NCBI RefSeq assembly: GCF_013911755.1
Contig: NZ_JACESP010000003.1
Location: 178,801-242,800 of the forward strand
Reading direction: 5' to 3'
DNA from: Sphingosinicella sp.
GTDB taxonomy: Bacteria > Pseudomonadota > Alphaproteobacteria > Sphingomonadales > Sphingomonadaceae
Length of the DNA: 64,000 nucleotides
Below are positions 9,603-23,088 of this stretch, piece by piece; within the stretch, counting starts at the first letter, position 1, and every line of letters starts with the position of its first letter. The notes under the pieces are model-generated. The model had not been told where the DNA came from. It was given only the letters and a program-made list of their open reading frames with translations, and searched no databases. The translations under genes and the position numbers were made by a program.

Positions 9603-10339
9603 GCTGTTCCCCTGAGAGTCTGGCCAAGCAGTTTGAAGAAGGTCTGGCTGTCCAGGTTCGATTCCGGATGCCATTCGGGATGCCACTGGACGGCGACGAC
9701 GGGCGATTTGCCGATGGTCGCCGAGTACGCCTCGACGAGGCCATCGGGCGCGGTCGCTTCCACGGTCAGGCTGTCGGCGAGGCGACCGATACCCTGAAAG
9801 TGAACAGAGTTCACATCGAGCGATGGCGTATCGTAAGTACGCGCGAGAAGGCCGCCGGGGACGAGATCGACGCGGTGGCGGTGATCGAACATGGCATCGA
9901 ACGAAACCCCGTCCGGCGCATGATGGCGGATGAGGTCGTCGCTCGCGGAGGTGTCGCGGCGCAGCGTGCCGCCGAGCGCGACGTTGATTTCCTGAAAGCC
10001 GCGGCAGATGCCGAACACGGGACGCCCACGCCCGATCATCGCGTCCACCATCGAAAGTGCGATCTCGTCACGGCCGGGATCGAACGGGCCTTCGCCACCC
10101 TCATCGTCATAGCGATTTCCCTCGATGTTCGAAGGGCTGCCGGTGAGGAGCACGCCGTCGAGACGGGGGGCGACCTCGGCCGCGGTCATCAGGTCCGGAA
10201 GCGAGGGGATCAGCAGCGCGGCAACGTCCGCATAGCGCATCGCCGCGCGCACATAGCGCTCGATGACGGCCTGCGCGGGCTCGGTGCCCACGGTGCGCTG
10301 GCAGCAGATGATACCAAGAACGGGACGGGCTGTGGTCAT
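9599..10339 (-). CDS. puuD: Gamma-glutamyl-GABA hydrolase (class I glutamine amidotransferase-like)
   Basis: This 246-residue hydrolase has nucleophile C112 in GICRGFQEINVALGG and His220/Glu222 in QWHPEWHPE, the triad of the PuuD family. It releases glutamate from gamma-glutamyl-GABA, giving GABA. It is translationally coupled to spuC through a 4-base ATGA overlap and begins 3 nt after the patD stop. The ATG at 10339 fits the family N-terminus (RPVLGIICC); the longer open frame upstream lies inside patD and is not similar to anything. Confidence 0.9.
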   Translation of the reverse strand: MTTARPVLGIICCQRTVGTEPAQAVIERYVRAAMRYADVAALLIPSLPDLMTAAEVAPRLDGVLLTGSPSNIEGNRYDDEGGEGPFDPGRDEIALSMVDAMIGRGRPVFGICRGFQEINVALGGTLRRDTSASDDLIRHHAPDGVSFDAMFDHRHRVDLVPGGLLARTYDTPSLDVNSVHFQGIGRLADSLTVEATAPDGLVEAYSATIGKSPVVAVQWHPEWHPESNLDSQTFFKLLGQTLRGTA

Positions 10340-10341
10340 AC

Positions 10342-11772
10342 TCAGTGCTTTATCATGACATGCCGCGTCGCAAGATAGTGTTCGAGGCTGTAGACCGAAA
10401 GATCGGAGCCGTAGCCCGAAGCCTTCACGCCGCCGTGCGGCATTTCGGTGGCGTTCACCGAGTGCGTGTTGATCCAGGTGACGCCGTATTGCAGGCGCGC
10501 GGCAAACGCCGCCGCCTTGCCGACATCGCGCGTCCATACCGAGGAAGCGAGGCCGTATTCGCTGTCGTTCGCCCAGTCGAGCGCCTGCGCGTTTTCATCG
10601 AAGCGCGTGACCGAGACGACCGGGCCGAACACTTCCTTCTGGACGATCTCGTCGCTGTTTTTGGCGCCCGCGATCAGTGTCGGCTGATAGAAGAAGCCGG
10701 GGCCCTCGGGCGCCTTGCCGCCGGTGACGACCTCGGCATCCGTGTCGGCGGCGGCGCGGGCGACAAACCCATCCACGCGGTCGCGCTGGCGCGCGGTGAT
10801 GAGTGGACCGAGGGCGGTGCCGGGCGCGGACGGATCGCCCATAGGGATCGCCTCGACCGCGCTCTGAAGCGCGGCGATCAGGCGGTCGTGGATGCTCGCA
10901 TGGGCATAAACGCGGCAGGCGGCGGTGCAGTCCTGCCCGGCATTATAGTAGCCGCCCTCGGCAATCGCCTCGACGGCGGCGGCGATGTCCGCGTCCGCCA
11001 GCACGATCACGGGCGCCTTGCCGCCAAGCTCGAAATGCGTGCGCTTTATGGTCGGCGCGACGGCTTCCATGATCTTGCGTCCCGTGGCGACGTCGCCGGT
11101 CAAGGACACCATGCGCACGCGCGGATGCGCGACGAGCCGCGCGCCGACGTTCGGCCCATTGCCGGTAACGACATTGACGACACCCGCCGGCAGGAACTCG
11201 GCGCACACTTCGGCGAGCCGCAGCGCTGTGAGCGGCGTGTGCTCGGATGGCTTCAGGACGACCGTATTGCCCGCGGCGATGGCAGGCGCGATCTTCCACG
11301 ACGCCATCATCAGCGGATAGTTCCACGGCGCGATGCCGACGACGACGCCAATGGGATCGCGGCGGATCATCGAGGTGTGGCCGGGCTTGTATTCGGCCGC
11401 CGCCTGACCGGGGATGGCGCGCGCTGCGCCCGCATAAAAGCGGAAGACGTCGATGGTGTTGCCCACGTCGACGGCGCGCGCGGTACCGATCGGCTTGCCG
11501 CAATTGCGCATTTCAAGCTCGGCGAATTCATCCGCCAGCGCCTCGATCCGGTCGGCGATACGGAGCATCCGCAGCGAGCGCTCCTTGGGCGACATTGCGG
11601 ACCACACCGCGAAACCGCGCTCGGCGGAAGCAATGGCGGCATCGACCTGCGCTCGGCTTGCACTGTTCAGCGTGGCGAGTGTGGCGCCTGTCGCCGGATT
11701 GAAAACCGGTTCGTGCGCGTCTTCGCCGTCGAGCGCGTGTCCGTCGATAAACTGGCTGGTCCGGTCGGTCAT
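10342..11772 (-). CDS. patD: Gamma-aminobutyraldehyde dehydrogenase (PatD/PuuC-like)
   Basis: A 476-residue aldehyde dehydrogenase with catalytic E248 in FELGGKAPV and C282 in [11 protein letters not shown]. The GQDCTAACR signature is that of YdcW/PatD, which oxidises 4-aminobutyraldehyde. In this operon it may also oxidise the gamma-glutamylated aldehyde made by PuuB, because no other puuC candidate exists apart from gabD. It is first in the four-gene operon. A LysR-type operator is centred about 94 nt upstream of its start. Confidence 0.88.
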
Positions 11773-11858
11773 GAGGGATCGGCTTTCCGCGTGAGAGATC
11801 GACCGGACGATAGGGATGGGGCTGCCTCATCGGAAATACGAAATGATACATACTATCT

Positions 11859-11873
11859 ATCGGTTTTCCCGAT
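11859..11873. promoter_or_regulatory. LysR-type operator upstream of patD (copy A)
   Basis: The core ATCGGTTTTCCCGAT sits in a perfect inverted repeat CTATCGGTTTTCCCGATAG (11857-11875). It has the ATC-N9-GAT and T-N11-A pattern of LysR regulators. A further half-site, ATCGGAAAT, lies at 11829-11837 on the promoter-proximal side and could be an activation site. It is the first of three copies in the putrescine locus. Confidence 0.65.
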
Positions 11874-11876
11874 AGC

Positions 11877-12332
11877 TTAGCGGTAATCCTCGCGCGCGAT
11901 TATTCTGGTTCGCATCCCTGCGAGCCACGCTTTCGCTTCGGGCAGGCCGGCGACCTTGGGACCGGTATTTATCGGGACTGTACGCCCGGTCTTTTCTTTC
12001 CCCACGGGCGGCGAATAGACCCACACTATGCCGCCACTGTCTGAAGCGGCCTGTTCATAAAGACGTTTTGCCTTGCGATAACTTTGTGGAACCCCGATCC
12101 CTGCCTCAAAGCGTTTTCCAAGCGCGAGTTGGGCGTATTTGTCCCCCGCCATCGCGCGCCTGGCCTCTTCCTGGACCAAGGGCGACGCCGCCCCGGGTTG
12201 CAGCGCGATATCGGCATAGGGATCAACGGCGCAGCCCACGAGCAGAGCTGCGACAGCGATGGAAAGATGATGGCGCTGCAGGACTGTGCGCCGATTCAGG
12301 ACTGCAGCACCACCGGGCTCGATCCGTGCCAC
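11877..12332 (-). CDS. Sel1-repeat-like lipoprotein at the end of the pot operon
   Basis: The product is about 151 residues, with a lipoprotein signal (SIAVAALLVGC) and one Sel1/TPR-like unit around GDKYAQLALGKRFEAGIGVP. It follows potA directly. The start is unclear: no ATG, GTG or TTG lies between the potA stop and the lipobox. GTG at 12332, 36 nt inside potA, gives a 33-residue signal and is used here. A CTG at 12299 overlapping the potA stop as CTGA is the alternative. Function is unknown; envelope location is inferred from the lipobox. Confidence 0.6.
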   Translation of the reverse strand: MARIEPGGAAVLNRRTVLQRHHLSIAVAALLVGCAVDPYADIALQPGAASPLVQEEARRAMAGDKYAQLALGKRFEAGIGVPQSYRKAKRLYEQAASDSGGIVWVYSPPVGKEKTGRTVPINTGPKVAGLPEAKAWLAGMRTRIIAREDYR

Positions 12333-13420
12333 GAGAGCCAGACCTTGTCGTCCCAGGTGAAGTCTTCCTGATCGTAGCGCGACAGGTTGGGACGAGAGAC
12401 GCGGATGACGCGGCCGGTATCCAGCTTCACCTCGTAGATCGTGATGTCGCCGAGGTAGGACATGCCGCGGATCTGGCCGTGCGCGATGTTGTCGCCTTCC
12501 GGGCATTCCGGGGCCGTCGGCTTGCCCTTCGCCTCGGGAATCATCGCGATCTTTTCGGGGCGCAGCGCGACGTGGACGTTCGCGTCATGCGGACCGGTAA
12601 CGCCGTGGTTGAGGTAAATGCGACCGATCTCCGGGCAGTCGACGACCGCCTTGTCCGGCTCGTCCACGACCAGCCTGCCGTCGAACAGGTTCACCGATCC
12701 GATGAAGTCCGCAACGAAGCGGTTCGCCGGGAACTCGTAGAGGTCGGACGGTGTCGCAAGCTGTGCGACGAGACCCCGGTTGATGACGGCGATGCGGCCC
12801 GCCATCGAGAGCGCCTCGTCCTGATCGTGCGTCACTGTGACGAAGGTGATGCCGACCTGCTCCTGAAGATCGGCAAGTTCGAACTGCATCGCGGCGCGCA
12901 GCTTCGCGTCGAGCGCGGAGAGCGGCTCGTCGAGCAGCAGCACCTTCGGGCGCATGACGAGCGAGCGGGCGAGCGCGACGCGCTGGCGCTGACCGCCCGA
13001 AAGCTGATCGGGGCGGCGGCCGCCGAAGCCGTCGAGCTTCACGAGCGCGAGCGCTTCCTCGACGCGGGATTTGATCTCCGAAGACGGCACGCGGGCAATG
13101 CGCAGGCCATAGCCGACATTCTCCGTCACCGTCATGTGCGGGAACACGGCGTAGGACTGGAACACCATGTTCACCGGGCGCTTGTTCGGCGGCACGTGCG
13201 CCATGTCCTGCCCGTCGATGACGATGCGGCCTTCGGTCGGCACTTCGAAGCCGGCAATCATCCTGAGCAGCGTGGTCTTGCCGCAGCCCGAAGGGCCAAG
13301 CAGCACGAAGAATTCACCGGGCATGATGTCGAGCGAGACATTGTCCACCGCCGCCACCGCGCCGAAGCGCTTGGTGACGTTCTGGATGCTGATGATGGGC
13401 TGTTTCGGTGCGGTCGCCAT
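12296..13420 (-). CDS. potG: Putrescine/spermidine ABC importer, ATP-binding subunit
   Basis: The 374-residue ATPase has Walker A GPSGCGKTT (42-50), signature LSGGQRQR (140-147) and Walker B VLLLDEPLSALD. A C-terminal regulatory TOBE domain follows, containing LRPEKIAMIPE. It energises polyamine import at the inner membrane face. It begins 5 nt after the second permease gene stops, as the fourth gene of the potF-H-I-G order. This is the PotG/PotA class; the attribution to putrescine rests on the surrounding puu genes. Confidence 0.9.
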   Translation of the reverse strand: MATAPKQPIISIQNVTKRFGAVAAVDNVSLDIMPGEFFVLLGPSGCGKTTLLRMIAGFEVPTEGRIVIDGQDMAHVPPNKRPVNMVFQSYAVFPHMTVTENVGYGLRIARVPSSEIKSRVEEALALVKLDGFGGRRPDQLSGGQRQRVALARSLVMRPKVLLLDEPLSALDAKLRAAMQFELADLQEQVGITFVTVTHDQDEALSMAGRIAVINRGLVAQLATPSDLYEFPANRFVADFIGSVNLFDGRLVVDEPDKAVVDCPEIGRIYLNHGVTGPHDANVHVALRPEKIAMIPEAKGKPTAPECPEGDNIAHGQIRGMSYLGDITIYEVKLDTGRVIRVSRPNLSRYDQEDFTWDDKVWLSWHGSSPVVLQS

Positions 13421-13425
13421 GGTGA

Positions 13426-14274
13426 TCAGTGGCCTTGCGGGGTTCCGCCCATCCGGCTTTGCACCTTCAGGGCTATGGTCGTGAGAATGACGGTGAGGGC
13501 GATGAGCAACGCGGAGGCGGCATTCACCTCCGGCGTCACCGAGAAGCGGACCATCGAATAGACTTTCACCGGGAAGGTGATGGTGTTCGGGCCGCTGGTG
13601 AAGAAGGTGATGACGAAATCGTCGAGGCTGAGCGTGAAGGCGAGGAGCGCGCCGGCAACGAGGCCCGGCTTCATGTGCGGCAGCAGCACGTCGCGGAACG
13701 CCTGCCATTCGCTGGCGCCAAGATCCTTCGCGGCTTCCTCTTCCTCGCGGTTGAAGCTGGTCAGGCGCGAGCGCACCACCATCGTCACGAACGGGAAGCA
13801 GAAGGTGATGTGCGCGATGATGATTGCGCCGAGGCTGAAAGGCCACGGCAGGTCGGTCGGGAAACCGATCTTGGCGAAGAACACGAGCATGGCGACGCCC
13901 ATGCAGATTTCCGGCACCACGATCGGCAGCGCCATCGCGCCTTCGGTCGCGGTCTTGCCCGGGAAGCGGAAGCGCCAGAGCATCACGGCGGCGAGCGCGC
14001 CGATGACGACGCTGACGATCGTGCTGATGAAAGCGATGGTGAGCGAGTTGCCCATCGCGACCATCAGCGAGTCGTTGTCGAGCGCTTTCTCGTAATATTT
14101 GAGCGTGAAGCCGCGCCACAGGATGTTGCGCTTGCTGTCGTTGAAGCTGAACGCGACGAGCGTGATGAGCGGCGCATAGAGGAAGAACAGCACGAGGCCG
14201 ACCCACGCGCGCATCCAGAGGCGCTTCGTGTATTCGAGCGGGGCGAGCGGGACGCGGGCCTTGAAGAGGCTCAT
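13426..14274 (-). CDS. potI: Polyamine ABC importer, permease (PotI/PotC type)
   Basis: This 282-residue inner-membrane protein has about six helices. The binding-protein-dependent transport signature EEAAKDLGASEWQAFRDVLL is at residues ~168-187, where it docks the ATPase. LPIVVPEICMG is the conserved PotC/PotI helix. The start at 14274 gives MSLFKARVPL and overlaps the upstream permease stop by 4 bases (ATGA). It forms the channel with PotH. Confidence 0.9.
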   Translation of the reverse strand: MSLFKARVPLAPLEYTKRLWMRAWVGLVLFFLYAPLITLVAFSFNDSKRNILWRGFTLKYYEKALDNDSLMVAMGNSLTIAFISTIVSVVIGALAAVMLWRFRFPGKTATEGAMALPIVVPEICMGVAMLVFFAKIGFPTDLPWPFSLGAIIIAHITFCFPFVTMVVRSRLTSFNREEEEAAKDLGASEWQAFRDVLLPHMKPGLVAGALLAFTLSLDDFVITFFTSGPNTITFPVKVYSMVRFSVTPEVNAASALLIALTVILTTIALKVQSRMGGTPQGH

Positions 14275-15173
14275 TGGCGGCGCTCCGCCTGGCGCGATTT
14301 CATGGCCTGGAACGCGATGGCGATGAAGGTTGCGTACATCAGAAGGAACGACAGCGCCGCGCCGAACGGCCAGTCGTTGGCGCGCTTGAACTGCCGCTCG
14401 ATGACGTTCGCGATCATCTGGCTGTCGGTGCCGCCGAGGAGGTCCGGTGTCAGATACGCGCCGAGCGCGGGCACGAAGGTGATGATGATGCCCGAGATGA
14501 TGCCGGGCGCGGCAAGCGGCGCGACAATGCTGAGCAGCGTGCGGACGTGCCCGGCGCCAAGATCCAGGCTCGCCTCGATGAGCGATTTGTCGAGCCGGTC
14601 GAGCGCCGCGTAGAGCGGCAGCACCATGAACGGCAGGTGGACGTAGACGAGGCCGAGGACGACGGCGAAATTGTTGTAGAGCAGCGGGAGCGGCTCGAAG
14701 GTTCCGAGCGGTTGGAGACCTGCAAAGGTCATCACCCCGCTCCATTTGTCCCACATCCAGCCGATCGTCTGGTTCGCATAACCTTCGGTCCGTAGCACCG
14801 CCATCAGCGCATAGGTGCGGATGAGGAGGTTCGTCCAGAACGGCAGCATGATCGCAAGGAGCAGCCATGGCCGCCACTTTTCCGTCGCGAAGACGATTGC
14901 GAGCGCCACCGGGAAGCCAACGACGAGGCAGATGATTGTGGTGAGCGCGGCGACTCCGACAGATTTCACGAAGATGCCGAGGTAGAGCGGTTCGAGCGCC
15001 CGCGCATAATTCGCGAACGTGCCGCTGATATCGATTTCGGTGAGGCCGACGTTTCGGCCGAAACTGTAAAGCCAGACGAGGCCGAGGGGGACGACGAAGA
15101 ACAGGAGCAGCCAGAGGATGGGCGCGCCCGCAATGGTTGCGAACAGCGCCCGGTTCAGCTTCCAGTCCTGCAT
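14271..15173 (-). CDS. potH: Polyamine ABC importer, permease (PotH/PotB type)
   Basis: The 300-residue permease starts MQDWKLNRALFATI and has about six membrane helices. PFWTNLLIRTYA is characteristic of PotB/PotH. The coupling loop EASLDLGAGHVRTLLSIVAP is in the C-terminal half. It lies 27 nt after the binding-protein gene and overlaps potI by 4 bases, so the importer genes form one operon. It is an inner-membrane heterodimer partner of PotI. Confidence 0.9.
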   Translation of the reverse strand: MQDWKLNRALFATIAGAPILWLLLFFVVPLGLVWLYSFGRNVGLTEIDISGTFANYARALEPLYLGIFVKSVGVAALTTIICLVVGFPVALAIVFATEKWRPWLLLAIMLPFWTNLLIRTYALMAVLRTEGYANQTIGWMWDKWSGVMTFAGLQPLGTFEPLPLLYNNFAVVLGLVYVHLPFMVLPLYAALDRLDKSLIEASLDLGAGHVRTLLSIVAPLAAPGIISGIIITFVPALGAYLTPDLLGGTDSQMIANVIERQFKRANDWPFGAALSFLLMYATFIAIAFQAMKSRQAERRQ

Positions 15174-15200
15174 CTCGCGCTCCCCCTCGCGCCCTGTCCG

Positions 15201-16310
15201 CTAGGCCGCGCGCACGCGGGTGAAGGCTTCCTCGAAGATCGGCTGCATCTTGCCGTCGTAGGCGGCATACTCGCATTTCGCGAGTGCTTCCGCGGGCGGG
15301 AAGATAACAGGGTTGTTCTTGTAATCGTCAGGCATCAACGCCTTCGCCGCCTCGTTCGGCGTGGGATACAGAATATATTCGGCGATCTTCTTTCCGGCTT
15401 CCGCATCGAGCAGATAATTGATGAAGGCGTGTGCGTTCAGCGGATGCGGAGCGCCCTTGGGGATGCACAGCGTATCGGAATTGAGCTGGCTGCCTTCTTT
15501 CGGAAGCACGAAGGCGATGTCGTCGTCCTCGGCCATGATCTGCGCAATGTCGCCGTTGTATTCCAGAACAAGATCAACCTCGCCCGAGAGCAGCAGATCC
15601 TGGCCGTTGTCCTCGTGGAACGCCTTTATGTTCGGCTTCTGCTTGATGAGCATCGCCTCGATCTGCTGCACGAGTTCAGGGGTAACGCCATTCACCGAAT
15701 GGCCGAGATACTTCGCGCTGAGACGGAACATGTCGCCGGCTTCCGAGAGAACGGCGATGCGGCCTTTGTACTTGTCCGAATCGAACAGCCACTTCCAGCT
15801 GTCCGGCACGCCGTCCACCTTCGATTTTCGGTAGCCGATGCCGAGCGTGAGCCAGGTGTACGGCATCGAGAACTTGCGGCCCGGATCGTAGGCGACATCT
15901 TTGAATTCGGCGCCGATGTTGGCGATGTTGGGAATCTTCGCATGGTCGAGCGGCATCAGCATGTCCGCCTGCACCATGCGCTCCACGAAGTCGTTCGAGG
16001 GCACGATCACATCGAAGCCGGGGTTGCCCGCGCGCAGCTTCGCGAAGAGTTCGTCGTTGGTCGCGAACAGGCTCATGTTGACGTCGATGCCCGACGTGTC
16101 CTTGAAATCGTCGAGCGTGGTTTCGCCGATGTACGTGTCCCAGTTGTAGAAGTTGAGCTTGGGCTCTTCGCCGGTGGAGGCTTCGCCGGCTTCCTTCTTC
16201 TCGCAGCCCGCGAGCGCGCCGGTGAAGGTGATGCCGATGGCGGCGGCGCCGAGCCCCTGCAGAAGCGAGCGGCGGCCGATGCGTTTACGGATGCTGTCGA
16301 AGCTGTTCAT
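15201..16310 (-). CDS. potF: Putrescine/spermidine-binding lipoprotein of the Pot importer
   Basis: A 369-residue periplasmic binding protein. Its N-terminus has twin arginines (RKRIGRRSLLQGLG) ahead of a hydrophobic stretch ending in ALAGC, so it appears to be a Tat-exported lipoprotein, unusual beside the Sec-exported E. coli PotF. LNFYNWDTYIGE and FDVIVPSND are family motifs; the Trp and Asp of the first contact polyamine in PotD/PotF. It is first in the transporter operon and divergent from the LysR gene. Confidence 0.9.
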   Translation of the reverse strand: MNSFDSIRKRIGRRSLLQGLGAAAIGITFTGALAGCEKKEAGEASTGEEPKLNFYNWDTYIGETTLDDFKDTSGIDVNMSLFATNDELFAKLRAGNPGFDVIVPSNDFVERMVQADMLMPLDHAKIPNIANIGAEFKDVAYDPGRKFSMPYTWLTLGIGYRKSKVDGVPDSWKWLFDSDKYKGRIAVLSEAGDMFRLSAKYLGHSVNGVTPELVQQIEAMLIKQKPNIKAFHEDNGQDLLLSGEVDLVLEYNGDIAQIMAEDDDIAFVLPKEGSQLNSDTLCIPKGAPHPLNAHAFINYLLDAEAGKKIAEYILYPTPNEAAKALMPDDYKNNPVIFPPAEALAKCEYAAYDGKMQPIFEEAFTRVRAA

Positions 16311-16483
16311 GGTCCCTGTCTCCCGTTCATCGCCCGCCAGCGATCATCCCCGGACTTCAACGCTCTGACGGCGCTCGGCGGATGCTAACGCAGCCGTGAC
16401 TGGCCGCAAGCCCCTCAGTCTCCCGAGGGTCATCAAAACCGTCTACCGCCGCCCGCGCAAATGCATTATGCAAACCGTGAGGT

Positions 16484-16498
16484 ATCGAAAAATCCGAT
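16484..16498. promoter_or_regulatory. LysR-type operator between potF and lysR (copy C)
   Basis: ATCGAAAAATCCGAT has the ATC-N9-GAT pattern. On the minus strand it reads ATCGGATTTTTCGAT, matching copies A and B in the ATCGG half and the T-rich centre. It abuts or overlaps the lysR start codon, a position suited to autorepression, and lies about 180 nt upstream of potF. Confidence 0.55.
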
Positions 16499-17402
16499 GG
16501 CAGAGATGAACATCACGTTCCGCCAGATCCGCTATTTCATCGCGGTCGCCGAGGCCCGGTCGGTCTCAGGCGGATCAAGTGCGGTCGGCATTTCGCAGTC
16601 AGCGGTGACGGATGCGATCCGCACGCTGGAGGCGGAAACCGGCGTCATGTTGTTCCACCGCCATGCCAAGGGCGTGACGCTGACGCGTGAGGGGCACCAG
16701 TTCCTGCGCCACGCGCGCTCGATCATCGACGCCATCGCCGACATGCAGGGCGGGGTCGGGCGCGAGCAGGACCTGACCGCAGGCAGCGTCCGCGTGGGCG
16801 TCACGCCCGTCGTCACCGGCTATTTCCTCTCCGACCTGCTGTCCCGCTTCAGGCGTATGTTTCCCCGCATCGAGGTCCAGCTCGTCGAAGAACGCCGCGA
16901 CTACATCGAACACTTGCTCATCAACGGCGAACTCGATCTCGCCGTCCTGATGGTGAGCAACCTCGAAGAGCGCAGCGCGATCGACCACGAGGTGCTGCTC
17001 CGATCAGAATGCCGCGCATGGGTCGCTCCCTCGCACCCGCTGTCGGACGTCGATGGCCTTAGCCTCACCGACCTCGAAAACGAGCCGGTGATCGCCCTCA
17101 CGCTCGACGAGCTCGAAGGGCTGATCGACGGCATCTGGTCCAAGTTCGACCACCCGCCGCGCGTCGCCTACCGCACCTCGTCGATGGAGGGCGTGCGCAG
17201 CCTTGTCGGCACGGGGGCGGGAATCACGCTGCTCCCCGATCTCGTCTACCGGCCCTGGAGTCTCGAAGGCGACCGCATCATCGCCAAGCGCACGCGCGAA
17301 AGCCTGCCCACCGTGGACATCGGCATCGCCTGGAGGCGCCTCACCCGCCACAGCGAAGCGGCGACATTGTTCATGGAGACGGTGCACGAGCACCGACGGT
17401 AA
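16497..17402 (+). CDS. LysR-family regulator, probable regulator of the putrescine locus
   Basis: The regulator is about 301 residues. An N-terminal winged helix-turn-helix (FRQIRYFIAVAEARSVSGGS, then SQSAVTDAIRTLE) is followed by a LysR substrate-binding domain (GSVRVGVTPVV onward). The ligand is unknown; a polyamine or glutamylated intermediate is a reasonable guess. The start is uncertain: ATG 16497 is used, but ATG 16506 (MNITFRQ) suits the family better and would leave operator C outside the coding region. The gene is divergent from potF, as LysR genes often are from their targets. Confidence 0.85.
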   Translation: MAEMNITFRQIRYFIAVAEARSVSGGSSAVGISQSAVTDAIRTLEAETGVMLFHRHAKGVTLTREGHQFLRHARSIIDAIADMQGGVGREQDLTAGSVRVGVTPVVTGYFLSDLLSRFRRMFPRIEVQLVEERRDYIEHLLINGELDLAVLMVSNLEERSAIDHEVLLRSECRAWVAPSHPLSDVDGLSLTDLENEPVIALTLDELEGLIDGIWSKFDHPPRVAYRTSSMEGVRSLVGTGAGITLLPDLVYRPWSLEGDRIIAKRTRESLPTVDIGIAWRRLTRHSEAATLFMETVHEHRR

Positions 17403-17405
17403 AGT

Positions 17406-18080
17406 TCAGGAAGGCCGCTTCGCGATCCAGATGATGTGGCGGGCGCCGCGGCGCTCGCCGTTGGTGCGGACGACGGTTTCTTCCACCTCGAAATTCGCCT
17501 TGATGAGCCGGTTCTTGAATGCGTGGTCCGGCGCGGCGGACCAGACGGCTAGGATACCGCCGGGTCGGAGCGCCTCGCGGGCGGCGATCAGGCCCTTGCG
17601 GCTGTAGAGCCGGTCGTTGTCCGGGTGGGTGAGGCCGTCGGGGCCATTGTCCACATCGAGCAGGATGGCATCGTAATGCGATCGCACGTCGCCGATCAGG
17701 TCCGCGACATCCTCCACGGCCACCGTGGCGCGAGGGTCGTCGAGACACCCGTCGAAGATGTGCGCCATCGGCCCGCGCGCCCAGGCCACCACCGAGGGGA
17801 CGAACTCGGCGACGGTGACCGACGCGTCTGCCGGAAGTTTGGCAAGTGCGGCCCTTAGCGTGAAACCCATGCCGAGGCCGCCGATCAACATCCGGGGCTG
17901 CGGGCGCGACTGGATCTTGCCGCATGACAGGGAGGCAAGGGCTTCTTCCGAGCCCTTGAGGCGGCTGTTCATCAGCTCGTTTGAACCGAGCATTATCGAG
18001 AATTCGGTGCCGCGCTGGATGAGGCGCAGTTCGCCTCCGCCGGGTATCTTCGCGGTATCGATCAGAATGCGCGGAAGCAC
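17406..18080 (-). CDS. Spermidine-synthase-like protein (SpeE fold, methyltransferase-like)
   Basis: The 224-residue protein has a Rossmann glycine loop GGLGMGFTLRAAL, then VTVAEFVPSVVAWA and YDAILLDVDNGPDG. This order is that of spermidine synthases and related class I methyltransferase folds. The acidic residue after the third strand (LDVDNGP) sits where the catalytic Asp of SpeE lies. It is shorter than true SpeE (about 280 residues) and lacks its N-terminal beta domain, so polyamine synthase activity is doubtful. It converges tail to tail with lysR, 3 nt apart. Confidence 0.65.
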   Translation of the reverse strand: MLPRILIDTAKIPGGGELRLIQRGTEFSIMLGSNELMNSRLKGSEEALASLSCGKIQSRPQPRMLIGGLGMGFTLRAALAKLPADASVTVAEFVPSVVAWARGPMAHIFDGCLDDPRATVAVEDVADLIGDVRSHYDAILLDVDNGPDGLTHPDNDRLYSRKGLIAAREALRPGGILAVWSAAPDHAFKNRLIKANFEVEETVVRTNGERRGARHIIWIAKRPS

Positions 18081-18116
18081 GGCTGTCTTTTCACCTTGCG
18101 GTCGCGTTCCGGATGA

Positions 18117-18449
18117 TCAGCGCTTCGAACGTTTTTTCCGAGCGGCGTAGCGCGCATCGCGGGCGGCTTTCTTTTCGGCCTCGGTCAGAGCGGCCGGCAC
18201 AGCGGCTGCGGTGCTTGCAGCCTCGCGCTTCTGCGCTTCACGCTCGGCCCTGGCGGCCGCGTCTGCAGCGCGGCGGGCGGCGCGCTCTTCGGCTTCGGCC
18301 GCTTCGCGCGCAAGACGCGCGGCCTTGAGCTCTGCGAGCGCAGCCTCATCCACCGGAGGCTTAGCCTTCAACTTTTCGAGGGCTTTTTGCTTCGCCTGTT
18401 TGGCGAGGGCGGCACGATCCTGGAAACTCGGAACCTTGAACGACGTCAT
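18117..18449 (-). CDS. DUF6481 family protein, Ala/Lys/Arg/Glu-rich
   Basis: The product is 110 residues, nearly all helix-forming and highly charged. It starts MTSFKVPSFQDRAALAKQAK and ends in a basic RYAARKKRSKR tail. The N-terminal motif and composition match DUF6481, a family found next to cspA in sphingomonads, as here. A coiled-coil, RNA- or ribosome-associated role is possible from the charge pattern but is not established. It is likely cotranscribed with cspA, with a strong hairpin in between. Confidence 0.7.
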   Translation of the reverse strand: MTSFKVPSFQDRAALAKQAKQKALEKLKAKPPVDEAALAELKAARLAREAAEAEERAARRAADAAARAEREAQKREAASTAAAVPAALTEAEKKAARDARYAARKKRSKR

Positions 18450-18486
18450 ATTTGGTGAAGCTCTATCCGCTGGTGGGTTGAACGAT

Positions 18487-18517
18487 CGGGCGGGCATCCG
18501 CTGGGGACACCCGCCCG
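18487..18517 (-). promoter_or_regulatory. Intercistronic hairpin between cspA and the DUF6481 gene
   Basis: CGGGCGGG and CCCGCCCG form a perfect 8-bp stem around a 15-nt loop. No T-run follows, so it is more likely an mRNA-processing or stabilising element, or a weak attenuator, than a full terminator. It lies 8 nt after the cspA stop codon. Confidence 0.5.
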
Positions 18518-18525
18518 GATACGCG

Positions 18526-18732
18526 TCAGGCGACCTGGAGGTTGACTGCCGAGGTCTTGCCGCGCTGATCGGTTTCCAGCTCGTAGGAAACGCGCTGATC
18601 CTTGTCGAGCGTGCGAAGACCGGCCTTTTCGACCGCCGAGATATGGACAAACGCATCGTTTCCGCCCGTTTCCGGCGCGATGAAGCCATAGCCCTTGTCT
18701 GCATTGAAGAATTTTACGGTTCCGGTGATCAT
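18526..18732 (-). CDS. cspA: Cold-shock protein CspA family
   Basis: This 68-residue single cold-shock domain has the two RNA-binding motifs, KGYGFI and DAFVHIS. The N-terminus is ITGTVKFFNADKGYGF. It acts as a nucleic-acid chaperone that melts RNA structure. MITGTV at 18732 is the start, with AAGGA about 8 nt upstream. A promoter is visible about 136 nt upstream, giving the long leader that cold-shock genes often use for temperature control. Confidence 0.93.
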   Translation of the reverse strand: MITGTVKFFNADKGYGFIAPETGGNDAFVHISAVEKAGLRTLDKDQRVSYELETDQRGKTSAVNLQVA

Positions 18733-18760
18733 AATGGGTATCCTTTGGCCCAATGTGTGA

Positions 18761-18789
18761 CGGGAACGCATCAACAGCGATGCTTCCCG
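18761..18789 (-). promoter_or_regulatory. Stem-loop in the cspA 5' leader
   Basis: CGGGAA and GCATC pair with GATGC and TTCCCG around a 6-nt loop, with one bulged base, giving an 11-bp stem in the untranslated leader about 30 nt from the start codon. There is no T-run. It may be a structural element of a thermoregulated leader; this is inference. Confidence 0.45.
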
Positions 18790-18867
18790 GCTTCTGTAAG
18801 GCTAGGCAGGGACAAAAGAGACCGAATCTCGGCCCGATATCCGTCGCTCGCGACGTCAGCGGGCGAA

Positions 18868-18896
18868 TCTATAACCCAAAATCACCGAAAGCGCAA
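18868..18896 (-). promoter_or_regulatory. Promoter of cspA
   Basis: TTGCGC and TATAGA are separated by exactly 17 nt on the minus strand. Transcription would start near 18861, leaving a leader of about 130 nt. It lies in the only AT-rich pocket between the puuA stop and cspA. Confidence 0.6.
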
Positions 18897-18909
18897 AACG
18901 TGCTCCGCG

Positions 18910-20301
18910 TCAGGCGTTCCTTAGGTACCATTCGTAGTCTAGCTCGGTGACCTCGCCGTAGAAACGGGCCATTTCGGTACGCTTCACGATCGAATAATAT
19001 TTCACGAAGCGCGCCCCTAGATAGTCGTTCATCAGCGGCGAGCCTTCGAAGGCGTCGTTGGCGGCAAACCAGTTGTTGGGGAGCTTTACGCCCGCGCTCG
19101 CCTCATCCTCGTAGCCGTTGCCGACGACGGCGGGGCCGGGATCGATGCGGTTCGTGATGCCGTGGTGCATCGCGGCGAGCACGGCGGCGACGGCGAGGTA
19201 AGGGTTCGCGTCCGCGCCGCAGACGCGGTGCTCTACGTGGCGCGAGGCGGGCGAGCCTGCGGGGATACGCAAGGACACCGTGCGGTTGTTGACGCCCCAT
19301 GTCGGCGCGACGGGCGCATAGCTGTTCGCCTTGAAGCGGCGGTAGCTGTTGGCATTCGGCGCGAAGACCGCCATCGATTCGCCGAGCGCGGCCTTCATGC
19401 CGCCGATGGCGTGGCGCAGGATCGGCGCGCCTTCGGGGTCTTCGCTCGCGAAGGCGTTGGAGCCGCTTTCGTCGGCCATCGAGATGTGAAGGTGCATGCC
19501 GTTGCCGGCCTCGTGCGCGAACGGCTTCGCCATGAACGTGGCCTCCAGGCCGTGTTTGACGGCGACGCCCTTCACGAGGCGCTTGTACATGACCGCGTCG
19601 TCCGTGGCGCGGAGCGCATCGGGCTTGTGGCGCAGCGTCAGTTCGAACTGGCCAGGGGCATATTCGGAAATCGCCGATTCGAGCGGAATGTTCTGGGCGT
19701 CGCACGCGGCGTAAAGATCGTCGAAGAACGGCTTGAAGTCTTCGAGCTCTCGCAGGCCATAGACCTGATTGTCGCCTGAGCGGTGGGGAGTGAGCAGGCC
19801 CTTTGCGGGGCGCGGCGTGCCGCCGGAGATGTCGAGCAGGAAGAATTCGAGCTCGACCGCGACGACGGGCGTGAGCCCGTCCGCCGCCAGCCGGTCGATG
19901 ACGCTGCCGAGGACATGGCGCGGATCGAGATCGTTCGGCGTACCGTCGAGCTCATAGAAGCTGGTGAGGAACTGGCCGGCGTTCTCGCCGAGCCAGGGCG
20001 CGCGGACGAGCGTGCCGGGGATCGGCTTCACATACCGGTCGGCGTCGCCGTCTTCCCAGACGAGGCCGGTTTCCTCGGTATCGCGGCCGGTGATATCGAC
20101 GACGACGGCCGAGCCGGGCAGGAAACGGCCGGATTCGTAGACGGCGATCACCTCGTGCTGGCGCAGGCGCTTGCCGCGCGGCACGCCGCACATGTTCGTG
20201 AAGATGATGTCGACCGCATCGATATCGGGGTTCGCCTCGAAAAAGGCGCGGGCCTCCGAAACGTCGGCGATCTTGTTGGAGGCAAGGGGCAGCTTGGTCA
20301 T
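18910..20301 (-). CDS. puuA: Glutamine-synthetase-like gamma-glutamylpolyamine synthetase (paralogue 1)
   Basis: This 463-residue glutamine synthetase-fold ligase has metal-binding ELEFFLL, then GNGMHLHISM, FAPNANSYRRF and VEHRVCGADANPYLA. In the puu setting it should join glutamate to an amine using ATP, making gamma-glutamylputrescine. It belongs to the GS branch without the adenylylation tyrosine region of GlnA. It lies 66 nt downstream of puuB, while the second paralogue precedes puuB. The two are clearly diverged, so their substrates may differ. MTKLPLASNKIAD at 20301 is the chosen start. Confidence 0.83.
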   Translation of the reverse strand: MTKLPLASNKIADVSEARAFFEANPDIDAVDIIFTNMCGVPRGKRLRQHEVIAVYESGRFLPGSAVVVDITGRDTEETGLVWEDGDADRYVKPIPGTLVRAPWLGENAGQFLTSFYELDGTPNDLDPRHVLGSVIDRLAADGLTPVVAVELEFFLLDISGGTPRPAKGLLTPHRSGDNQVYGLRELEDFKPFFDDLYAACDAQNIPLESAISEYAPGQFELTLRHKPDALRATDDAVMYKRLVKGVAVKHGLEATFMAKPFAHEAGNGMHLHISMADESGSNAFASEDPEGAPILRHAIGGMKAALGESMAVFAPNANSYRRFKANSYAPVAPTWGVNNRTVSLRIPAGSPASRHVEHRVCGADANPYLAVAAVLAAMHHGITNRIDPGPAVVGNGYEDEASAGVKLPNNWFAANDAFEGSPLMNDYLGARFVKYYSIVKRTEMARFYGEVTELDYEWYLRNA

Positions 20302-20367
20302 GGGTTCATTCCATAAGGCTTGAGAGGCATTCGCCCAAGACATTGCCGCGGGCGGCGGCGGGCGCAA

Positions 20368-21642
20368 TCACAGCCGGTCTCTCAGCGCGTACCAGAGCAT
20401 ACCGGCGACGTAGAGCGGGTGGCGCAGCAGCGGCCCGCCGGGGAAGGGCTTCACGGGCAGCGATGCGAACAGGTCAAAGCGCTCGGCGGTGCCGCGCATC
20501 GCTTCGGTGATGAGTTCGCCTGCGAGCGTCGAGAGCAGGACGCCGTGGCCCGAGTAGCCGTGTGCGTAGAAGATATTGCCCTTGCGGCCGAAGTGCGGAA
20601 GGCGGTTCATGGTGACGCCGACGAGGCCGCCCCACGCATAGTCGATGCCGATGCCTTCAAGGCCGGGGAATGCCGCCTCCATGTAAGGCCGCACGAACCC
20701 GGCGACGTCGCGCGGCGGGCGCGGCGTGTATTTCTCGCCGCCGCCGAAGATCAGGCGATTGTCGGCCGAAAGGCGATAATAATTGAGGACGAAGCGGCTT
20801 TCGGAGATTGCAGCGCCCGACGGGATGAGCGCGCGGGCGCGTTCCTCGCCGAGCGGCTGCGTCGCGACATTGTAGTTCGCCACCGGCATCGTGTAGCGGC
20901 CGAGATTGGCGTCTATCTGGCTCGTGAAGGCGTCGCACGCGAGGACTACGTGGTGGGCGGAAACGCTGCCGTGCGTGGTGGTGACGCCGGGCCGATTGCC
21001 ACCCGTGATGCGGAGGACAGGTGAACCTTCATAGAGCCGGACGCCGGCCGCGCGCGCGGCTTCGGCGAGGCCGAGCGCGTAGTTCAGCGGATGGAGGTGG
21101 CCGCCCGCCGAATCGTAGATGCCGCCGTGATAGCCCTTCGCCGAGACGATTCCCGCGGTCTGCTCCGGGCGCACAAGCTGCGCGGTGCCGTAGCCCATCA
21201 CATAGTCGAGGCATTCCAGCTCGCGCTCCATGGCGGCGAGGTCGGCGGGTTTGCAGGCGGCGGTGAAATGACCGTGGCGGAGATCGCAGGCGATGCCGTG
21301 CCGGGCGATGCGGTCGTGGACGCGCGTGCGCGCCGTGTCGGCCACGCTGAACAAGCGCTGGGCGGTTTCCTGCCCGAAGCGCTCCACGAGATCGGTCGCG
21401 GACCAGCGCAGGCCGGGGATCATCTGGCCGCCGTTGCGTCCCGAAGCGCCCCAACCGATACGGTGTGCTTCGACAAGGGTGACGGCGTAGCCGGCTTCGG
21501 CGGCGGAGAGCGCGGCAGAGAGGCCGGTGTAGCCGCCGCCGACGACGCAGACGTCTGTGGCCGCGCTGCCTGTGAGTTGCGGCTGGGCCGGGAAGGGGTT
21601 GGCGGTCGCGGCGTAGTACGACGGCGCGTGCGGCTCAGCCAA
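20368..21642 (-). CDS. puuB: Gamma-glutamylputrescine oxidoreductase (FAD, PuuB-like)
   Basis: The 424-residue DAO-family flavoenzyme has a dinucleotide fold near its start (CVVGGGYTGLSAAL, residues ~32-45). RIGWGASGRNGGQM is the FAD-covering motif of PuuB/OrdL proteins. Near the end GYSGHGVLLSTLAGELI is the second FAD contact. It oxidises gamma-glutamylputrescine to the aldehyde with release of ammonia and hydrogen peroxide. It starts 2 nt after the upstream puuA stop, so the two are translated together. Confidence 0.87.
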   Translation of the reverse strand: MAEPHAPSYYAATANPFPAQPQLTGSAATDVCVVGGGYTGLSAALSAAEAGYAVTLVEAHRIGWGASGRNGGQMIPGLRWSATDLVERFGQETAQRLFSVADTARTRVHDRIARHGIACDLRHGHFTAACKPADLAAMERELECLDYVMGYGTAQLVRPEQTAGIVSAKGYHGGIYDSAGGHLHPLNYALGLAEAARAAGVRLYEGSPVLRITGGNRPGVTTTHGSVSAHHVVLACDAFTSQIDANLGRYTMPVANYNVATQPLGEERARALIPSGAAISESRFVLNYYRLSADNRLIFGGGEKYTPRPPRDVAGFVRPYMEAAFPGLEGIGIDYAWGGLVGVTMNRLPHFGRKGNIFYAHGYSGHGVLLSTLAGELITEAMRGTAERFDLFASLPVKPFPGGPLLRHPLYVAGMLWYALRDRL

Positions 21643-21644
21643 GA

Positions 21645-22994
21645 TCAGACCCTCAAGAGGAGGTGTTCGCGCTCCCAGGAACTGATCACCGACTGATACG
21701 CGAACAGCTCGGATTCCTTGATCGCGTAGAACACGTCGAAGAAGTCCTCACCGAGATGGTTGCGGACGGCCTTGCAGTGGCTGAAGCGATCAAGCGCGCT
21801 TTCGAGCGTGCGCGGCAACGTGCGCGCGCGGTTATAGGCGCTGCCCTGCAGACTCTTGGGCGGCTGCATCCGCTCGGTCATGCCGACATAGCCGCAGATG
21901 AGCGAGGCGGCGATGGCGAGATAGGGGTTTGAATCCGCGCCGGGCAGGCGGTTTTCGATGCGCCGGTTCTTCGCGTCCGAAACCGGGATGCGCAGCCCGC
22001 AGGAGCGGTTGTCGCTGCCCCACTGCACGTTGATCGGCGCGTCGCTATCGGGCCGCATTCGGCGGAACGAATTGACGTTCGGCGCGAACATCGGCGCGAT
22101 CTGTGGCAAAAGGCGAACGAGACCTGCGATGTAGCTGCGGAACAGAGCGCTATCGCGGCCCTGCGGCGTGGTGAACAGGTTTCGGCCCGTGTCGCTATCG
22201 AGCAGCGACTGGTGGATGTGCATCGAACTGCCGGGCTGGTCCGACATCGGCTTGGCGAGGAAGGTGGCGTACACGCCATGTTCGAGCGCGACCTGACGGA
22301 CGATGCGCTTGAAGAGCAGCACCTGATCGGCAAGCGCAAGCGGATCGCCGTGGACGAAATTGATCTCGAGCTGGGCGGCGCCGGACTCGTGGATCATCGT
22401 GTCGATGTTGAGCTCTGCCTTCTCGCAGAAATCGTAGATGTGCTCGATGATGTCCTCGAACTCCCCGAGCGCTTCGAGGCCGTAAGGCTGGCTCGCGGTT
22501 TCCGACCGGCCCGACCGGCCCGCGGGCGGTGTGAGCGGAAAATCGGAATCGAGGTTCTTGGAGACGAGGTAGAATTCCAGCTCCGGCGCGATCACCGGTT
22601 TCCAGCCGCGCCGCTCGTAGAGATTCAGCACCTTTTTCAGGATCATGCGTGGCGCGATGCCGAGCGGTTTCCCCTCGCGCGTATAGGCGTCCGCGATGAC
22701 ATAGGCGGTCGGTGTCTTGAACCCGGGCGCTTCGCGGATCGTCGACGGATCGGGCACCATCACCATGTCGGGGTCATAGTCGGGAATGATGTGATTGATG
22801 TCGTCCGGATATTCACCGGTGACGGTTACGGTGTAGACGCTGCCCGGAATGCGGAGCGTCTGGTCCGTGAGCGACTTCAGGAACTTGCCGGCAGGCAGAA
22901 CCTTGCCGCGCTGAATGCCGTTCATATCGGGGACGATGCACTCGACCTCGCTGATACCGCGTTCACTGATCCAATTTGCAATTTCGGCTGACAT
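21645..22994 (-). CDS. puuA: Glutamine-synthetase-like gamma-glutamylputrescine synthetase (paralogue 2)
   Basis: The second GS-fold ligase has 449 residues. Motifs are PELEFYLVS, SSMHIHQSLLD, FAPNVNSFRRM and IENRLPGADSNPYLAIA. It opens the puuA-puuB-puuA operon and is the better candidate for the main PuuA, being directly coupled to puuB. The insertion SGRSETASQPYGLEALGEFE and the IPDYDPDMVMVPD strand are typical of PuuA-type proteins. A LysR-type operator is centred 87 nt upstream of the start. Confidence 0.85.
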   Translation of the reverse strand: MSAEIANWISERGISEVECIVPDMNGIQRGKVLPAGKFLKSLTDQTLRIPGSVYTVTVTGEYPDDINHIIPDYDPDMVMVPDPSTIREAPGFKTPTAYVIADAYTREGKPLGIAPRMILKKVLNLYERRGWKPVIAPELEFYLVSKNLDSDFPLTPPAGRSGRSETASQPYGLEALGEFEDIIEHIYDFCEKAELNIDTMIHESGAAQLEINFVHGDPLALADQVLLFKRIVRQVALEHGVYATFLAKPMSDQPGSSMHIHQSLLDSDTGRNLFTTPQGRDSALFRSYIAGLVRLLPQIAPMFAPNVNSFRRMRPDSDAPINVQWGSDNRSCGLRIPVSDAKNRRIENRLPGADSNPYLAIAASLICGYVGMTERMQPPKSLQGSAYNRARTLPRTLESALDRFSHCKAVRNHLGEDFFDVFYAIKESELFAYQSVISSWEREHLLLRV

Positions 22995-23073
22995 GATCGG
23001 ATAAACCCCCGTCTGGCATCATACTGCGCGGGCGGCACGCGATTGGCCAGAGGGATTTGCTGGAGCAGGGGGT

Positions 23074-23088
23074 ATCGGTTTTTCCGAT
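23074..23088. promoter_or_regulatory. LysR-type operator upstream of puuA (copy B)
   Basis: ATCGGTTTTTCCGAT is a perfect 5-bp inverted repeat with the ATC-N9-GAT / T-N11-A pattern. It differs from copy A at one base. It is centred 87 nt from the puuA start, close to the 94 nt seen for copy A and patD. The divergent TPR-sulfotransferase gene begins 63 nt on the other side and could also be affected. Confidence 0.65.

What the first reader, a model, noticed from the sequence alone, without database searches (positions are those of the whole stretch)
11857..23088. Three copies of one LysR-type operator define a putrescine regulon
The 15-mers ATCGGTTTTCCCGAT (11859), ATCGGTTTTTCCGAT (23074) and, on the minus strand, ATCGGATTTTTCGAT (16484) share the form ATC-N9-GAT. 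Each lies in an intergenic region of the putrescine locus: before patD, before the first puuA, and between potF and lysR. Copies A and B are 94 and 87 nt from their start codons. LysR proteins bind T-N11-A sites, and a LysR gene sits beside copy C. The simplest reading is that this LysR, not a PuuR-type repressor, controls both enzyme operons and the importer.
Basis: partly seen in the sequence, partly recalled or inferred. Interest (0 to 1): 0.78.

Follow-up and report, generated by a model that had tools for sequence, protein, structure and literature searches.

The report
LysR regulator's putrescine-gene control sites
Three near-identical short DNA sites beside a bacterium's putrescine uptake and breakdown genes are very probably the landing sites of the LysR-type regulator encoded between them, a local switch kept in about two dozen related genomes and not found beside the same genes in the relatives examined that lack the regulator.

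Summary
In detail: the three 15-mers are where stated, 0 of 100 window shuffles gave three exact matches, and the 3.63-Mb genome has one other. In 24 loci with the LysR ortholog, ATCG-N7-CGAT recurs upstream of the puuA operon (18 of 18 covered; 3 with one mismatch), before patD (16 of 21; in the 5 misses patD follows potG within 76 bp) and at the lysR start (20 of 24 exact). The conserved operator is longer than 15 bp. A profile trained without this genus finds these three copies and nothing else at E<=5 in the genome (150 of 392 candidates scored). Of 149 family genomes, 7 of 7 with the LysR have at least two profile hits; of 21 with a close PotF but no LysR, one has a single hit, away from its pot genes. 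Corrections: copy C overlaps the probable lysR start codon, so autoregulation is its clearest role; control of potF is unproven; PuuR-like proteins exist elsewhere in the genome. No binding or expression data. Ordinary in kind, apparently undescribed.

The parts
11859..11873 (-). Operator copy A (patD sense ATCGGGAAAACCGAT)
   Evidence: exact ATCG-N7-CGAT in 16 of 16 loci where the potG-patD gap is at least 105 bp
11833..11843 (-). Second conserved element of operator A (TTTCGTATTTC)
11807..11812 (-). Putative -10 (TATCGT) of the patD promoter; implied site centre at -66
   Evidence: TAnnnT at this spacing in 13 of 16 loci; inference
16484..16498 (-). Operator copy C (potF sense ATCGGATTTTTCGAT), overlapping the probable lysR start codon ATG 16497-16499
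   Evidence: best profile hit in the genome (E 3.7e-11 with R1, 1.8e-8 with R2)
16442..16483 (-). Rest of the extended operator C, with the conserved GCATAAT element
23074..23088 (-). Operator copy B (puuA sense ATCGGAAAAACCGAT)
   Evidence: present in 18 of 18 loci that cover the stretch upstream of puuA1, 3 with one mismatch
23032..23073 (-). Rest of the extended operator B, with a conserved AAATC...TGG element
23018..23023 (-). Putative -10 (TATGAT) of the puuA promoter; implied site centre at -70
   Evidence: such a hexamer is in range in only 5 of 14 loci; inference
16497..17402 (+). lysR: LysR-type regulator (start 16497 or 16506; longest ORF from 16461)
   Evidence: Pfam HTH_1 and LysR_substrate; orthologs at 77-100% and one at 60%
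15201..16310 (-). potF-type putrescine/spermidine binding protein
   Evidence: below the equivalog cut-offs
14271..15173 (-). potH/potB-type permease
   Evidence: below the equivalog cut-offs
13426..14286 (-). potI-type permease (start approximate)
12296..13420 (-). potG/potA-type ATPase
   Evidence: above the PotA subfamily cut-off
10342..11772 (-). patD: aminobutyraldehyde dehydrogenase subfamily
   Evidence: NF010000 727.8 bits, cut-off 615
9599..10339 (-). puuD-type gamma-glutamyl-GABA hydrolase (Peptidase C26)
   Evidence: 35% to E. coli PuuD
8220..9596 (-). class III aminotransferase (PRK07480 type; spuC-like name is mine)
6764..8206 (-). gabD: succinate-semialdehyde dehydrogenase
   Evidence: NF008415 829.5 bits, cut-off 828
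21645..22994 (-). puuA1: glutamine-synthetase-like, gamma-glutamylputrescine synthetase candidate
   Evidence: below cut-offs; 32% to E. coli PuuA
20368..21642 (-). puuB: FAD oxidoreductase, 44% to E. coli PuuB
18910..20367 (-). puuA2, 40% to E. coli PuuA

Best explanation
The three 15-mers are the high-affinity halves (LysR recognition sites, T-N11-A type, ATCG-N7-CGAT) of about 50-bp bipartite operators of the LysR-type regulator encoded at 16497-17402. Each operator continues towards its operon with a second, looser element 15-25 bp on. The likely working: a LysR tetramer binds both elements. At A, and probably B, the recognition site is centred about 66-70 bp before the inferred transcription start, the place from which LysR regulators activate when an inducer (putrescine or a pathway intermediate) shifts the tetramer. 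At C the bound tetramer covers the likely lysR -10 region and start codon, so it represses lysR; it may also act on potFHIG in the other direction. Shown here: sequence, conservation, specificity, and co-occurrence with the regulator. Inferred: binding, tetramer geometry, activation, autorepression, effector.
For: Position and rarity. In 24 loci: A in 16/16 where the potG-patD gap is at least 105 bp and 0/5 where it is 20-76 bp; B in 18/18 covered, 15 exact and 3 with one mismatch; C in 20/24 exact. Shared extended architecture. Profile R2, trained on 31 sites of other genera, finds all three copies and nothing else at E<=5 in the own genome (E 1.8e-8, 0.012, 0.016). R1 also hits sites it was not trained on: G136:C189 (8.1e-9, exact arms, upstream of the Gcw_chp and puuA1 homologs), G003:C47 (2.2e-6), G090 B (2.9e-5). 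Co-occurrence: 7 of 7 LysR-bearing genomes of 149 have at least two hits; of 142 without it, 3 have one each. 28 of 149 have a close PotF, 21 of them without LysR; 1 of the 21 has any hit, on another contig from its PotF. Three syntenic puu-pot loci without lysR (L180-L182) have no exact AT-centred site. TAnnnT puts A at -66 in 13 of 16 loci. The HTH is 88-100% identical in 22 of 23 other orthologs.
Against: No binding or expression data. B has a TAnnnT hexamer at the right distance in only 5 of 14 loci and C (potF direction) in 2 of 23. In 12 of the 18 loci B is not directly before puuA1 but 0.9-2.9 kb away. R2's E-values for A and B in the own genome are modest, and its match to A is on the strand opposite to patD. 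Profile searches score only part of the first-look candidates (36-150 per genome in most cases), so weak sites could be missed. Most R1 hits in LysR-bearing genomes are its own training sites. Loci share ancestry, so 24 are not 24 independent events. In L073 (60% LysR) copy C is degenerate and displaced and B lacks the AGC extension; in L078 the downstream arm of C is broken.
Confidence: 0.88

Rival explanations
1. The sites belong to a different transcription factor (for example a PuuR-like protein) that happens to be kept in the same genomes; the LysR is a neighbour with another task.
For: Two PuuR-like proteins are encoded elsewhere in the genome, and PuuR-like genes sit near puu genes of two LysR-less relatives (L142, L143).
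Against: Site C sits on the start of lysR itself in 22 of 24 loci, the usual autoregulatory arrangement of LysR genes (recalled). The sites are missing from three otherwise syntenic loci without lysR. The T-N11-A dyad with a second element is LysR-like, and no PuuR match at E<=0.001 lies on the contig that holds this locus.
Confidence: 0.07
2. LysR binds all three sites but works mainly as a repressor of all targets, relieved by putrescine, rather than as an activator.
For: E. coli PtrR, another LysR protein in putrescine use, is reported as a repressor of sad (PMC9068703, passages read). In the potF direction a TATAAT-like hexamer (mean 4.65 of 6 matches) would place site C at about -33.
Against: At A the site is at -66 relative to a -10-like hexamer in 13 of 16 loci, the activating geometry (position rule recalled).
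Confidence: 0.2
3. The 15-mers act as RNA hairpins or terminators (5-bp stem, 5-base loop), not as protein-binding DNA.
For: Each is a perfect or near-perfect inverted repeat; copy A starts three bases after the stop codon of the Sel1-like gene.
Against: ATCG and CGAT stay fixed instead of changing in pairs, while the centre varies. Non-palindromic elements nearby are conserved with them, no long T-run follows the three copies, and the sites track the lysR gene.
Confidence: 0.01

Closest known systems
LysR-type regulators with T-N11-A recognition sites (family in general; features recalled; one search gave listings only)
   Same: Dyad arms ATC...GAT, T-N11-A spacing, site near -66 of a target promoter at A, site beside the regulator's own gene
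   Different: Local polyamine regulon in Sphingomonadales; operator overlaps the regulator's probable start codon
E. coli PtrR (YneJ), LysR-type regulator of sad in putrescine use (PMC9068703, passages read)
   Same: LysR protein tied to putrescine catabolism, acting on a neighbouring operon
   Different: Reported site TTCACnAATnGAGAA, targets sad and (predicted) fnrS, not the puu/pot operons
E. coli PuuR and P. aeruginosa PauR (PuuR: PMC9397018 passages; PauR: title in its reference list, and listings)
   Same: Dedicated regulator of gamma-glutamyl-putrescine catabolism
   Different: Another protein family; PuuR is a repressor; not encoded in this locus

Membership tests
LysR-type transcriptional regulator (protein) | N-terminal LysR HTH and LysR substrate-binding domain | tested here: met
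   Pfam HTH_1 67.5 bits, LysR_substrate 133.3 bits
LysR-type operator | T-N11-A inside an interrupted dyad | tested here: met
   ATCG-N7-CGAT in all three copies
LysR-type operator | Second (activation) element at set distance from the recognition site | tested here: met
   Conserved downstream columns shared by B and C and, more loosely, A; by sequence only
LysR-type operator | Recognition site near -65 of the target promoter | tested here: inconclusive
   A: 13 of 16 at -66; B: 5 of 14 within -58 to -74; C (potF sense): 2 of 23. Start sites are inferred
LysR-type operator | Regulator binds it | not testable with these tools
   Needs gel shift or footprint
PuuR-type regulation | PuuR-like gene in the puu locus | tested here: not met
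   The six PuuR matches at E<=0.001 are on other contigs, the best two on C7 and C32, and not beside puu genes
PtrR (YneJ) regulon | Site TTCACnAATnGAGAA and a divergent sad gene | tested here: not met
   The three sites have other letters and lysR's divergent neighbour is potF; the PtrR site was not searched for and the two proteins were not compared

The most novel reading that the evidence does not exclude
In a scattered set of Sphingomonadales a LysR activator has taken over, as a unit with its operators, the whole putrescine uptake and gamma-glutamylation regulon that PuuR-type repressors run elsewhere. Its autoregulatory operator is fused to its own initiation codon, so one 15-bp element is kept both for binding and for starting translation, and the regulon gains or loses promoters as operons split or fuse (patD has its own operator only when it does not closely follow the pot genes).
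Probability: 0.5. Interest if true: 0.5.

Novelty: new member of a known kind. Interest (0 to 1): 0.42.

Why it matters
It gives an unnamed LysR protein a precise, testable regulon, operator and likely inducer class, in a group for which the listings seen here showed no described polyamine-catabolism regulator. It is also a clear natural case of a regulator and its operators being present or absent together in an otherwise syntenic pathway locus. A putrescine-responsive LysR promoter could be useful as a sensor.

Tried and rejected
The fourth exact match in the genome (C16:87) ends on the start codon of another LysR-family gene (L090:100-1002). R1 and R2 did not report it at E<=5, so I do not count it as part of the regulon. 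Of the 46 places with up to one mismatch, I looked beyond the four exact ones only at C28:5751, which lies upstream of a TonB receptor gene and was not reported by R1 or R2 either.

That PuuR is simply absent from the genome was tested and rejected. An RNA-hairpin reading was rejected because the arms are fixed rather than covarying. A search for solved relatives gave LysR regulators of other systems, which do not name the effector. No structure was predicted; it would not decide binding.

Rows left out: R1 used 44 of the 55 sites listed (near-duplicates and L073 left out), R2 31. The -10 counts leave out L073 and do not include the three one-mismatch B sites. The LysR of G198 (42%, L079, another context) and the remote loci L075-L077 are not among the 24. 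Some patD starts (L038, L058, L072, L078) are extrapolated from partial matches.

Among LysR-less relatives, L178 and L179 hold pot genes without recognisable puu genes beside them, so they are weaker controls than L180-L182. One-mismatch matches with an AT-rich centre do occur in L180 (4), L181 (10), L182 (4) and L144 (11), much as in nine LysR-bearing loci counted the same way (4-15, true sites included). These counts alone do not separate the two groups. The whole-genome profile search reported none at E<=0.01 in those four loci (G063's one hit is on C3).

One profile hit outside the locus was kept as a lead: G264:C31:35608 (E 1.3e-4), upstream of an amino-acid permease gene. The G063:C3 hit (E 2.0e-4) shows no exact AT-centred ATCG-N7-CGAT at its place and was read as chance. 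G045 and G070 (E 0.0028, 0.0062) were not followed up.

Papers: PMC9068703, PMC9397018 and PMC5343134 were seen as found passages; all others as search listings with the start of the abstract. The canonical LysR features (T-N11-A, -65 position, tetramer with two elements) are recalled.
Full report
OBSERVATION. The three 15-mers are at 11859 (+), 16484 (-) and 23074 (+) as stated. Exact ATCGGNTTTNNCGAT is expected 0.02 times in the window and 0 of 100 shuffles gave three. The whole genome (3,633,286 bases, 48 contigs) has four exact matches, three of them here, against none for the reversed control; a first-order model of the window predicts 0.85 for a sequence as long as the genome and 0.015 for the window. 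The pattern was drawn from the three copies, so these numbers are optimistic. The bare arms ATCG-N7-CGAT are expected about four times per 64 kb and occur six times.

SETTING. On the minus strand lie patD, puuD, an aminotransferase and gabD (behind copy A); potF, potH, potI and potG (beside copy C); and puuA1, puuB and puuA2 (behind copy B). The lysR gene is on the plus strand. Names rest on family profiles and on 32-44% identity of PuuA1, PuuA2, PuuB and PuuD to the E. coli Puu proteins; several equivalog cut-offs are not reached, so exact substrates are inferred. Among named records the most similar LysR genes (99-100%) are in Sphingosinicella.

FOOTPRINTING. I collected 24 loci with the LysR ortholog: the window, 5 of the same genus, and 18 others, one of them with a LysR of only 60% identity. 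Exact ATCG-N7-CGAT occurs at the lysR start in 20 of 24. The other four have mismatches or a shift: L066, L067, L078, L073. Before patD it occurs in 16 of the 21 loci that include the patD start. All 16 have at least 105 bp between potG and patD; the five without (L050, L051, L070, L071, L072) have 20-76 bp, so there patD may ride on the pot transcript. Upstream of puuA1 it occurs in all 18 loci that reach far enough, 15 exact and 3 with one mismatch. Its distance from puuA1 varies: 87-208 bp in 6 loci, 0.9-1.05 kb in 11, and 2.9 kb in L073. In all 11 of the middle group a homolog of one outer-membrane-type gene (Gcw_chp) lies between site and puuA1; in L073 a TonB receptor gene does. So the site marks the head of the presumed operon. 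G136, whose lysR contig ends before puuA1, has the site exactly there on another contig (L146).

THE FULL OPERATOR. Aligned in the sense of the enzyme and transporter operons, A, B and C share ATCG-N7-CGATA and usually ATAGC, then a second element: TTTCGTATTTC in A, AAATC...TGG in B, ATAATC...TGG in C. The window's copies B and C have ATACC, and its copy A ATAGA. Mean pairwise identity 21-60 bases downstream is 0.39-0.51, against 0.67-0.72 in the first 20 bases after the site and 0.96-1.0 in the arms; arm identities of A and B are 1.0 by construction, since those sites were picked as exact matches. The counts above are not affected.

SPECIFICITY. Profile R1 (44 sites) over 11 genomes gave 31 matches at E<=1e-3, 30 of them in the pot-puu locus; most are its own training sites. 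The exception, G264:C31, is upstream of an amino-acid permease gene. R2 was built from 31 sites of other genera only. Over the own genome it finds copies C (1.8e-8), A (0.012, on the strand opposite to patD) and B (0.016), and nothing else at E<=5. Over six genomes of the genus 20 of 22 rows fall in the pot-puu loci, some being one site read on both strands. Only 107-150 first-look candidates per genome were scored.

CO-OCCURRENCE. Of 40 relatives, 6 have the LysR at E<=1e-60, and all 6 have two or three R1 hits at E<=1.5e-4; all 6 contributed training sites. Of the 34 without it, 4 have hits at E<=0.05, the best 0.0046. Of 149 genomes of the family, 7 have the LysR at E<=1e-40 and all 7 have two or three hits; of 142 without it, 3 have one each (2.0e-4, 0.0028, 0.0062) (stricter filters, 36 candidates scored per genome). 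The two sets overlap. Of the 28 with a PotF at E<=1e-120, 7 have the LysR and 21 do not; one of the 21 (G063) has a hit, on another contig from its PotF. I fetched the wider loci of 6 of the 21. Three (L180, L181, L182) keep the order puuA1-puuB-(aminotransferase-like)-puuA2-potFHIG without the LysR and hold no exact ATCG-N7-CGAT with four or more A/T in the centre. L178 and L179 have pot genes only. L144 (G008) has pot and puu genes, no LysR, and no such site near them. One-mismatch matches occur there at a rate like that of other loci.

MECHANISM. At A, a TAnnnT hexamer stands at one fixed place in 13 of 16 loci (one more is a base off), which puts the site centre at -66, the textbook LysR activating position (rule recalled). 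At B the window itself has TATGAT (-70), but only 5 of 14 loci have such a hexamer in range. At C 2 of 23 have one in range towards potF. Site C overlaps an in-frame ATG of lysR in 22 of 24 loci and its second element covers a likely lysR -10 (read), so autorepression is the better-supported role. Activation by an inducer is inference.

REGULATOR IDENTITY. The HTH region (64 residues) is 88-100% identical in 22 of the 23 other orthologs and 75% in L073. PuuR-like proteins are present in this genome on other contigs, one near an MFS and one near an M20 peptidase gene, and not next to puu genes; PuuR-like genes stand near puu genes of two LysR-less relatives.

KNOWN WORK. E. coli PtrR is a LysR protein of putrescine use with another site and target (PMC9068703, passages). 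PuuR represses puu genes in E. coli (PMC9397018, passages). A large regulon reconstruction in Proteobacteria (PMC5343134, passages) mentions putrescine genes only under ArgR in the passages seen. The listings showed no LysR regulon for puu/pot genes in Sphingomonadales; most listed papers were not opened and subscription papers are not in the library.

VERDICT. A conserved, locus-restricted LysR regulon, very probably real: ordinary in kind, apparently undescribed, directly testable.

Noticed in passing
own genome C7:19410-19955 and C32:7637-8164 (L087, L088): Two PuuR-like regulators (39% and 35% to E. coli PuuR) away from puu genes, one beside an MFS transporter gene and one beside an M20 peptidase gene.
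   Followed up: partly
own genome C16:87-101 (L090): Exact ATCGGCTTTTTCGAT ending on the start codon of a different LysR-family gene, the same arrangement as copy C; the profiles did not report it.
   Followed up: partly
own genome C28:5751-5765 (L089): ATCGATTTTTTCGAT about 170 bp upstream of a TonB-dependent receptor gene; perhaps chance.
   Followed up: partly
L145:4608-4648 (G264:C31): Extended operator (profile E 1.3e-4) about 100 bp upstream of an APC-type amino-acid permease gene: a possible extra regulon member in that genome.
   Followed up: partly
L060:16459-17181 and L073:15507-17882: Between operator B and puuA1, 11 of 18 loci carry a Gcw_chp outer-membrane-type gene, and L073 a TonB receptor gene: candidate outer-membrane routes for polyamines.
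   Followed up: partly
17406-18080: Spermine-synthase-domain protein gene convergent with lysR, matched in 4 of the 24 loci (window, L056, L057, L074), all of this genus.
   Followed up: no
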